Origin: Brumimicrobium salinarum
Lineage (GTDB): Bacteria > Bacteroidota > Bacteroidia > Flavobacteriales_D > Crocinitomicaceae
Length of the DNA stretch: 64,000 nt
Assembly (NCBI RefSeq): GCF_002844555.1
Contig: NZ_PJNI01000002.1
Span: forward strand, 124,001 to 188,000
Direction: 5' to 3'
The notes beneath the pieces are model-generated. The model saw only the letters and a list, made by a program, of their open reading frames with translations. It was not told the origin of the DNA and did no database searches. Every line of letters begins with the position of its first letter. Positions within the stretch are counted from its first letter, which is position 1. The translations under genes were made by a program, and so were the position numbers. This document shows positions 10,143 to 32,953 of this stretch, in pieces.

Positions 10143-10532
10143 TGAAGGATTTAATGGTTTAAAATTCAAAAATATCAACTTACGCTATTTATTTAGTAAG
10201 TTATCTTTTTTATGTTGGGAATACTGTGGACTCCATTTGAATTGATATATTTAATCGCATAAAAATATTGATTATTAATTGAAATTTCTATACTTGAGAA
10301 GGTGCGACTTAATTTCAAAATGAAATTTTTATTGATCCGAAAAAACGTTTTGATGCTCCCTTCCTTGAAAACAGATGTATACCTTTCCTCTTTCATGATT
10401 TCTAAAAACTATAACTTTATCCACATGCGTTTAGGAGTCTTAATTATAACTTTTTTAAATGGTATACTTTCATTAAAGTATTTATATTGTACCTGAACAA
10501 GCATATAGATAACCTTAAGCTAATTTTTTTCA
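10143..10532. other. Intergenic stretch without a convincing gene
   Basis: About 390 bp follow the exported-protein gene. Only short frames of 64-67 codons occur on both strands, overlapping one another around 10193-10496, with no start context, motif or neighbour support. One of them (minus, 10193-10396) reads like an eroded C-terminal fragment of a larger beta-rich protein, but this cannot be shown. The stretch ends at the left border of the MITE. Confidence 0.4.
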
Positions 10533-10867
10533 ACTGGGCTACCAAGCTAGGTCGTTAATCCTAGTTTTAAGGTTATGTTTTTTCAATAATTACAGCCGAG
10601 AACTATATCAATTAATTTTATTTAGTGTTTAACTTTATCAAAAAAAGGAAGAAGAGATTCCTCAGTTGTTAAAATCTAAAATTTTATCAACTATCGGAAT
10701 GACAGCTCATAAGGAGGTCTTTGGGATAAAATTTGCTCAAGCTTCGCTTGAGCAAATTTTATCCCGCCAAAGCCAACAAACACCTGTCATTCCGATGGAG
10801 TCCCGAGAACTCGGGGCGACGAGGAATCTTTTTTTAAATAATTACGACTTATCTTGGTAACCCAATT
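10533..10867. mobile_element. MITE family A, full-length copy (335 bp)
   Basis: The ends form a 21-bp imperfect terminal inverted repeat: the left end reads tgggctaccaagctaggtcg and the right end, reverse-complemented, tgggttaccaagataagtcg, with 3 mismatches. The inside is also palindromic. atcggaatgacag pairs with ctgtcattccgat, gagattcctc pairs with gaggaatct, and the centre is a perfect 20-bp hairpin. A second copy lies at 32570-32763 and lacks 141 bp of the middle. No transposase is encoded, so a transposase elsewhere in the genome would have to mobilise it. No clear target-site duplication is seen. Confidence 0.8.
10723..10765. repeat. Perfect 20-bp hairpin at the centre of the MITE
   Basis: The left arm at 10723-10742 (gggataaaatttgctcaagc) and right arm at 10746-10765 are exact reverse complements around a 3-base loop (ttc). 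This central cruciform is absent from the second copy. Confidence 0.85.
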
Positions 10868-10906
10868 TTTCACATTAAAAGATTAGAAAAATGATTGTTG
10901 TTATTT

Positions 10907-32452: not shown

Positions 32453-32569
32453 TATTATCATAATTTAAGTAAAATATTTTTTGATATATGGATCCAGACT
32501 AATTATTGGGGATTAAGCATAAATATTTGTCAATCTGAATAAAACATATCCAAAATTTTATATTCTCCT

Positions 32570-32763
32570 ACTGGGCTACCAAGCTAGGTCGTTAATCCTA
32601 GTTTTAAGGTTGTGTTTTTTCAATAATTACAGCCAAGAACTGTATCAATTAATTTTACCCCGCCAAAGCCAACAAACACCTGTCATTTCGATGGAGTTCC
32701 GAGAACTCGGGACGACGAGGAATCTCTTTTTAAATAATTACGACTTATCTTGGTAACCCAATT
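32570..32763. mobile_element. MITE family A, internally deleted copy (194 bp)
   Basis: Both ends match the copy at 10533-10867 base for base apart from a few substitutions (ctgggctaccaagctaggtc at the left, cttatcttggtaaccca at the right). The middle 141 bp, including most of the internal hairpin arms, is missing. The deletion endpoints in the longer copy are short direct repeats (aatttta at 10614-10620 and 10755-10761), so slippage or recombination between them explains it. It lies in the 588-bp gap between the 73-aa gene and the MtfA-like gene, which otherwise holds only a terminator and a promoter. Confidence 0.82.
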
Positions 32764-32953
32764 CTTCTATATCTTATCCTGAAAGTTTTTTATAATTTAG
32801 AATAAAATATATCATTAAAGCTTTAAGCATAAAAGTGGTTAAAACCATTCCCTCCCCAACTTTTGAGATTGATCCGATATATGCCTGTCATTCACGGCTT
32901 GCTTTCAGATTTTATAAATTAAAGTATGTGTATATAAGTTTTAGACGTTGTAA

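What the first reader, a model, noticed from the sequence alone, without database searches (positions are those of the whole stretch)
10533..10867. Hairpin-forming MITE (family A) with two copies, one cleanly deleted
Seen: copies at 10533-10867 (335 bp) and 32570-32763 (194 bp) share near-identical ends with 21-bp imperfect inverted repeats. The longer copy is one large foldback with a perfect 20-bp core hairpin. The shorter copy lacks exactly 141 bp between two aatttta direct repeats, so it appears to be a deletion product. Inference: the element is mobilised in trans. The inner phrase tgtcattccgatggag...gaggaatct looks like intergenic repeats common in flavobacteria, so the family may be widespread.
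Basis: partly seen in the sequence, partly recalled or inferred. Interest (0 to 1): 0.6.

Follow-up and report, generated by a model that had tools for sequence, protein, structure and literature searches.

The report
Jumping hairpin repeat with nested palindromes
The sequence is a short, gene-less jumping element that borrows the ends of a known bacterial transposon family and carries a bundle of hairpins inside; it is a real mobile repeat with many relatives, and its copies show hairpins being flipped and lost.

Summary
Confirmed and extended. The 335-bp foldback at 10533-10867 and its shortened relative at 32570-32763 belong to a gene-less element (MITE) with 12 two-ended copies found in this genome (9 family A, 3 with another interior). 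Its ends (TGGGYTACCAAG..GTCG) match a 1,023-bp IS1595-family insertion sequence in a congener. Of 62 extracted TIR pairs, 43 carry 8-bp target duplications with at most one mismatch (shuffled mean 1.9), the length known for IS1595. No intact transposase with these ends was found in the window's genome. Copy 2 did not jump to its place by itself: it sits inside an ISL3-type repeat, of which another copy is the empty site, and the nested pair occurs at three places. Its 141-bp deletion is one of several hairpin deletions. The interior is a REPIN-like set of hairpins that also occurs without these ends; elements with the same ends in other genomes can hold unrelated interiors. Of 14 family A copies with an intact central hairpin, the 3-nt loop is ttc in 7 and gaa, its reverse complement, in 5, with paired stem changes: footprints expected from template switching. 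A known kind of element in a new variant; movement in trans is inferred, not shown.

The parts
10534..10865 (+). Copy 1, full-length IS1595-type MITE (family A), 332 bp
   Evidence: TIR pattern at both ends with 0 mismatches; limits set by the 8-bp duplication
10526..10533 (.). Left target duplication tttttcaa
   Evidence: 7 of 8 identical to the right one
10866..10873 (.). Right target duplication tttttcac
10655..10829 (+). Inner REPIN-like unit: outer stem AGATTCCTC..GAGGAATCT enclosing the inverted CGGAATGAC/GTCATTCCG stem and three hairpins
   Evidence: (I3, I4); the same architecture without these TIRs elsewhere
10665..10691 (+). Side hairpin H1; loop CTAAA here, CTAAT or CTAAG in others, ATTAG (CTAAT inverted) in three copies
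10723..10765 (+). Central perfect hairpin, 20-bp arms, loop ttc (10743-10745); loop inverted to gaa in other copies
10802..10815 (+). Small palindrome CCCGAGAACTCGGG inside the right REP-like unit
10614..10754 (+). Stretch of copy 1 missing in copy 2 (141 bp), bounded by aattttat at 10614-10621 and 10755-10762
32571..32761 (+). Copy 2, same MITE with a 141-bp internal deletion, 191 bp
32563..32570 (.). Left target duplication of copy 2, ttctccta
   Evidence: present once at the empty site in G000:C86
32762..32769 (.). Right target duplication of copy 2, ttcttcta
32490..32875 (+). Second, ISL3-type repeat (GGATC..GATCC ends) in which copy 2 is nested
   Evidence: in a congener the same end lies beside an ISL3 transposase ORF

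Best explanation
The feature is a MITE of the IS1595 insertion-sequence family. It has no gene; its ends are those of an IS1595-family IS, and the transposase of such an IS, acting in trans, most likely inserted it into AT-rich sites, making 8-bp duplications (ends and duplications shown, action in trans inferred). Inside the ends lies an unrelated passenger: a REPIN-like pair of inverted palindromic units enclosing a long central hairpin, which is also dispersed without these TIRs. Copy 2 in the window was first inserted into an ISL3-type repeat, the nested pair is now found at three places, and copy 2 afterwards lost 141 bp between short direct repeats flanking the hairpin. The hairpins appear to form during DNA replication: loops are found inverted, stem changes are paired, and the hairpin has been deleted several times, as expected from template switching and slippage (inferred from the pattern).
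For: Own-genome copies and both ends. Matching IS: G007 element of 1,023 bp with TIRs TGGGTTACCAAGCTAGGTCG / TGGGTTACCAATTTAAGTCG and duplication taaaggaa, 307-aa ORF hitting Pfam PF12762 (1.8e-17) and NCBIfam NF033547 (4.1e-41). A second IS with the same kind of ends and an exact 8-bp duplication in another genus (G022). 8-bp duplications: 43 of 62 with at most 1 mismatch (26 of 62 exact); 500 shuffles gave mean 1.91, maximum 7; the columns just outside the 8 are at chance. Paralogous empty site in G000:C86:206108-206294. Nested pair at three places: window, G000:C65, G001:C1. Deletions. Loop inversions and paired stem changes. Passenger without these TIRs.
Against: The one IS1595-type transposase found in the window's genome (C76:75666) is 40% identical to the query, has a TAA in frame, and shows other ends. 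None was found in G001 or G005 by either search, although G005 has 37 end hits and 17 two-ended pairs. So the present mobiliser is unseen; drafts may hide it. 19 of 62 TIR pairs have no clear duplication. No orthologous empty site could be aligned for copy 1: G001, G003 and G006 have no such end between the same two genes, but the spacer does not align. The tree behind the loop-flip count has 2 starred inner branches of 11 and 8 open ones.
Confidence: 0.86

Rival explanations
1. The interior, not the TIRs, is the mobile part: a REPIN-like element moved by a Y1 (RAYT) transposase, the shared ends being old flanking DNA.
For: The inner unit has inverted REP-like palindromes, occurs without these TIRs, and Y1-type matches are present in 10 of 10 genus genomes, 9 over the cut-off.
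Against: Target duplications sit at the TIR ends; elements with the same ends can hold other interiors. 30 of the 39 Y1 places were looked at with about 1.5 kb on each side: no TGTCATTCCGA (up to 1 mismatch), TGTCATTTCGA (exact) or CCCGAGAACTCGGG (up to 2) in any, only single hits of cgaggaatct (up to 1 mismatch) in 3. Four of the six own-genome places were among the 30.
Confidence: 0.06
2. The paired stems are a conserved RNA or terminator kept by selection, and mobility is incidental.
For: Strong folding, paired changes in the stems, no frame of 100 aa or more running across any of 13 own-genome copies, 4 of the 13 between convergent genes by a crude ORF call.
Against: Loop inversions are not expected from selection on pairing alone; the hairpin is lost in many copies; no Rfam match in the window at the gathering threshold. 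No expression data are at hand.
Confidence: 0.15
3. Segmental duplication instead of transposition made the pair.
For: Copy 2 shares both flanks with copies at G000:C65 and G001:C1.
Against: Those flanks are a dispersed repeat of about 190 bp with its own ends, beyond which the sequences differ; copy 1 has unrelated flanks and most extracted pairs have their own duplications.
Confidence: 0.03

Closest known systems
IS1595 family insertion sequences (ISXO2-like DDE transposase)
   Same: Terminal repeats shared with a family member found here; 8-bp AT-rich duplications, as reported for ISApl4 (PMC12561309, passages seen)
   Different: No transposase; interior unrelated to the IS; end sequence TGGGYTACCAAG, for which the listings showed me no description
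REPINs / REP palindromes (PMC3116915, PMC2817692: search listing only)
   Same: Two palindromic units in inverted orientation round a spacer, several copies per genome
   Different: Enclosed in transposon ends here; no RAYT-type gene seen beside the motif; a long perfect hairpin in the spacer
Porphyromonas gingivalis MITE with an internal minisatellite (PMC4596501: search listing only)
   Same: A MITE of a Bacteroidota species with another repeat inside
   Different: The passenger there is a minisatellite; here a multi-hairpin dispersed repeat
Template-switch footprints in RNA hairpins (PMC8794818: passages seen)
   Same: Loop inversion and compensatory stem changes
   Different: There inferred on phylogenies of RNA genes; here between copies of one mobile repeat within and between genomes

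Membership tests
IS1595-derived MITE | Ends match an IS of the family | tested here: met
   G007 IS carries the 20-mer pattern at 0 and 1 mismatches; transposase domains
IS1595-derived MITE | 8-bp target duplication | tested here: met
   43 of 62 pairs with at most 1 mismatch; shuffled mean 1.91, maximum 7
IS1595-derived MITE | No transposase gene of its own | tested here: met
   No ORF of 80 aa or more overlaps either window copy
IS1595-derived MITE | Filled and empty sites | tested here: met
   One paralogous empty site, G000:C86. For copy 1, three relatives lack the ends between the same genes but the spacer does not align
IS1595-derived MITE | Moved in trans by an IS1595 transposase | not testable with these tools
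   Needs a transposition assay
REPIN (for the interior) | Two REP-like palindromes in inverted orientation | tested here: met
REPIN (for the interior) | RAYT gene flanked by the same palindromes | tested here: not met
   30 of 39 Y1 places examined, no such palindrome beside them
REPIN (for the interior) | GTAG/CGTC-type tag at the palindrome | not tested
   The tags are named in the title of PMC3733652 (listing); not scanned here
ISL3-type MITE (host of copy 2) | End shared with an ISL3-family IS | tested here: met
   In G009 one end of the repeat (C43:19737-19805) lies just past a 311-aa ORF with PF01610 at 4.7e-57; the other end of that IS was not looked at

The most novel reading that the evidence does not exclude
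IS1595-type ends act as a general vehicle that has repeatedly picked up unrelated multi-hairpin repeats (two interiors in this genome, others in G029, G024 and G002), giving genomes without a matching RAYT a way to spread REP-like palindromes, while template switching during replication keeps the hairpins perfect and flips their loops.
Probability: 0.35. Interest if true: 0.6.

Novelty: new variant of a known kind. Interest (0 to 1): 0.42.

Why it matters
Multi-copy elements whose copies differ by loop flips, paired stem changes and hairpin deletions are natural replicates for measuring template switching at hairpins in a bacterium. The element also shows how dispersed palindromes without a visible mobiliser can travel inside a transposon's ends, and how one MITE can ride in another.

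Tried and rejected
A 6-bp target duplication was my first reading by eye. The count over 62 pairs favoured 8 bp: positions 1 and 8 agree above chance and the columns outside do not.

A link of the interior to Y1/RAYT genes was sought in 30 of 39 loci and not found.

Rfam gave no match in the window at the gathering threshold. With the lax threshold, 12 loci gave 16 matches, 11 of them animal or plant microRNA models that look like chance. Acido-Lenti-1 reached its gathering score in L072 (37.7 against 37) and fell short in L064 (33.7); both are elements of another genus with another interior. I do not build on it.

Orthologous empty site of copy 1: G001, G003 and G006 have the two genes side by side and no such end between them (up to 5 mismatches), but the spacer has no convincing BLASTN match. 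In G002, G004 and G005 the two genes are not adjacent at the same distance, so those were not used.

Literature. Searches: IS1595 with MITE (9 papers), IS1595 with repeats and flavobacteria, the inner motif as letters (245 papers, 30 listed, subjects unrelated by title), Acido-Lenti-1, MITE with flavobacteria or Bacteroidetes (20 listed), template switching (15 listed), REP with Bacteroidetes (20 listed). I saw no description of this element in those listings. Most subscription papers are not held.

The genome-contig scan with the two transposases kept 80 loci. I inspected 2 of 80: L277 has the flanks of the G022 IS, and L278 shows one end only. The other 78 were not examined.

The end-finding script is a weak negative: it also missed the known ends of L077, which lay outside its range.

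Mended notes: says that 8 of 14 motif places lie in TIR elements; recounting one search gives 7 of 14.

Full report
Observation. Copies 1 and 2 are present as described. Copy 1 holds a perfect 20-bp hairpin with a 3-nt loop and folds far better than shuffles (as DNA, z = -11.2; 0 of 100 as good). Copy 2, folded as RNA, has z = -4.9 (0 of 200). The size difference is a single 141-bp gap between two aattttat repeats of copy 1.

Copies in the genome. The window is part of a 3.41-Mb draft of 86 contigs. A search with 356 bases gave 67 matches at E up to 10. Read with flanks and with a scan for the terminal 20-mer (28 hits with up to 3 mismatches against 3 for the reversed control pattern), they resolve into 12 elements with both ends: nine of family A type (L001, L002, L003, L004, L005, L010, L011, L012, L022) and three (L019, L024, L025) with the same ends but another interior. 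Two further places (L006, L026) show one end only. Others match the interior without these ends (for example L014, L015, L016/L017, L020). Weak rows were not followed.

Relatives. With the same query, 9 of 59 genomes (own genome included) matched at E up to 0.001, with the longest matches in congeners G001, G004 and G005. The end pattern with up to 2 mismatches was sought in 150 genomes of the family, own included: 37 matched, but single hits are near background, since the reversed control gives up to 3 per genome. Ten genomes have four or more hits: G000 23, G001 6, G002 14, G004 5, G005 37, G009 4, G022 7, G024 14, G029 5, G140 5.

The matching insertion sequence. In G007 two such ends enclose a 307-aa ORF with Pfam DDE_Tnp_IS1595 (1.8e-17) and the IS1595 zinc ribbon, and NCBIfam IS1595 (4.1e-41). 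G022, of another genus, has a second such IS of about 1 kb. As a check on specificity: of the five genus places over the PF12762 cut-off (G000, G002, G006, G007, G009), only the G007 one has the end pattern beside it. G002's has TATGCTTCCCCGCAAT ends with its own 8-bp duplication. For G006 the script gave only an unconvincing pair, and for G009 and the window's genome nothing; it is a weak negative, because it also missed the known ends of L077. For the window's genome an inverted pair ttgaattcccca had been seen; that copy is 40% identical and carries a stop. In G001 and G005 no IS1595 transposase was found.

Target duplication. From fetched stretches I extracted 62 TIR pairs, dropping weak pairs and pairs with identical flanks. 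The stretches were chosen by hand from the hits, so the set is not a random sample. It includes two complete ISs, and three pairs (L004, L010, L059) go back to one nested insertion. In 43 of 62 the 8 bases on either side agree with at most one mismatch (26 exactly); 500 shuffles gave a mean of 1.9 and a maximum of 7. The columns just before and after the 8 agree no more often than shuffles (35 against 35.6; 30 against 29.6). The target looks like TWAWWTWA. ISApl4, an IS1595-family element, also makes AT-rich 8-bp repeats, and 7-9 bp is given there for IS1016 elements (PMC12561309, passages seen). 19 of 62 show no clear duplication.

Copy 2 is nested. Its flanks recur in G000 and congeners. Stretches read side by side show a repeat of about 190 bp with ends GGATC..GATCC. 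G000:C86:206108-206294 is that repeat without the MITE and has the 8-bp target once: a paralogous empty site. The repeat with the MITE in the same place occurs in the window, at G000:C65 and at G001:C1, with different sequence outside; at C65 an 8-bp repeat attttgag flanks it, while in the window 7 bases (gatatat) agree. In G009 one end of the same repeat lies beside an ISL3-family transposase ORF (PF01610, 4.7e-57). So the MITE most likely inserted once into an ISL3-type repeat and the pair was then copied. The C65 copy has a different, 41-bp gap and the G001 copy is full length, so the 141-bp deletion arose after that.

Hairpin loss. Nine short copies were compared with a full-length relative. 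L010 lost 141 bp and L218 (G005) 139 bp between the same aatttta repeats; given the nesting, these are separate events. L223 lost 101 bp (tga), L004 41 bp (aaaa), L224 100 bp (tcttt), L011 and L012 the same 124 bp with no exact repeat at the joint (one event or two is open), and L022 and L253 have two gaps each. In all nine the central hairpin or part of it is gone.

Hairpin flips. Of 25 aligned family A elements, 14 keep the central hairpin. Its loop, read in one orientation, is ttc in 7, gaa in 5, aaa in 1 and caa in 1. ttc and gaa are reverse complements; both occur in the G000/G001 group and in the G005 group. On a tree built without the hairpin columns at least 4 changes are needed for the 12 copies with ttc or gaa, though only 2 of 11 inner branches are starred and 8 are open. 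The side hairpin has CTAAT, CTAAA or CTAAG in most copies that keep it and ATTAG, the reverse complement of CTAAT, in L002, L003 and L059. Stem pairs change on both sides: pair 11 in L067, pair 17 in L001, pair 21 between the groups; one copy (L186) has a single G-T pair at 5. Loop inversions and compensatory changes are footprints that PMC8794818 (passages seen) ascribes to template switching in replication; that this happened here is inferred.

The passenger. The interior pairs AGATTCCTC with GAGGAATCT and CGGAATGAC with GTCATTCCG; in family B and in L265 of G029 the arms read TTTC/GAAA and CGAAATGAC/GTCATTTCG, paired again. That script matched both orientations of a palindrome and some rows take the wrong arm, so its 68 rows are not independent units. 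The motif TGTCATTYCGA..GAGRAATCT has 22 places in the own genome with the 4-30 gap, control 0. By position 13 lie in the TIR elements and 9 do not; with the 8-28 gap it is 7 and 7. It occurs in 17 of 59 genomes (own included), among them G003 with 11 places and no end hit. So the inner unit exists apart from the MITE. Elements with the same ends in G029, G024 and G002 hold other interiors, while one in G029 (L265) has the same kind. In the own genome no frame of 100 aa or more runs across any of 13 copies (the 12 and L006); neighbours are 4 convergent, 8 tandem, 1 divergent by a crude ORF call, which cannot exclude an interrupted gene.

Verdict. A real MITE of the IS1595 kind, with ends and a passenger that I saw described in none of the listings named in Tried and rejected, and a clear record of hairpin turnover. 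The mechanism of movement is inferred from ends and duplications.

Noticed in passing
window 32490-32875; G000:C86:206108-206294, C14, C45, C1:391202: A second dispersed repeat with GGATC..GATCC ends (ISL3-type MITE), several copies internally shortened.
   Followed up: partly
L155 (G004:C7:88000-91200); L016/L017 (G000:C8): The inner hairpin unit occurs in a tandem array with about 303-bp spacing in a congener, and as two units 433 bp apart in the own genome, without these TIRs.
   Followed up: no
L064 1143-1524 and L072 1507-1899 (G029): Elements with the same ends but an interior of AGTCCTG-type repeats; L072 reaches the Rfam gathering score for Acido-Lenti-1 RNA (L064 does not), so this RNA family may overlap mobile repeats.
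   Followed up: partly
L247 and L248 (G002:C12:372793, C23:56559): Two elements of 0.92-0.93 kb with the same ends; one ORF of 60 aa in L247 and none of 60 aa or more in L248, perhaps decayed ISs or larger MITEs.
   Followed up: no
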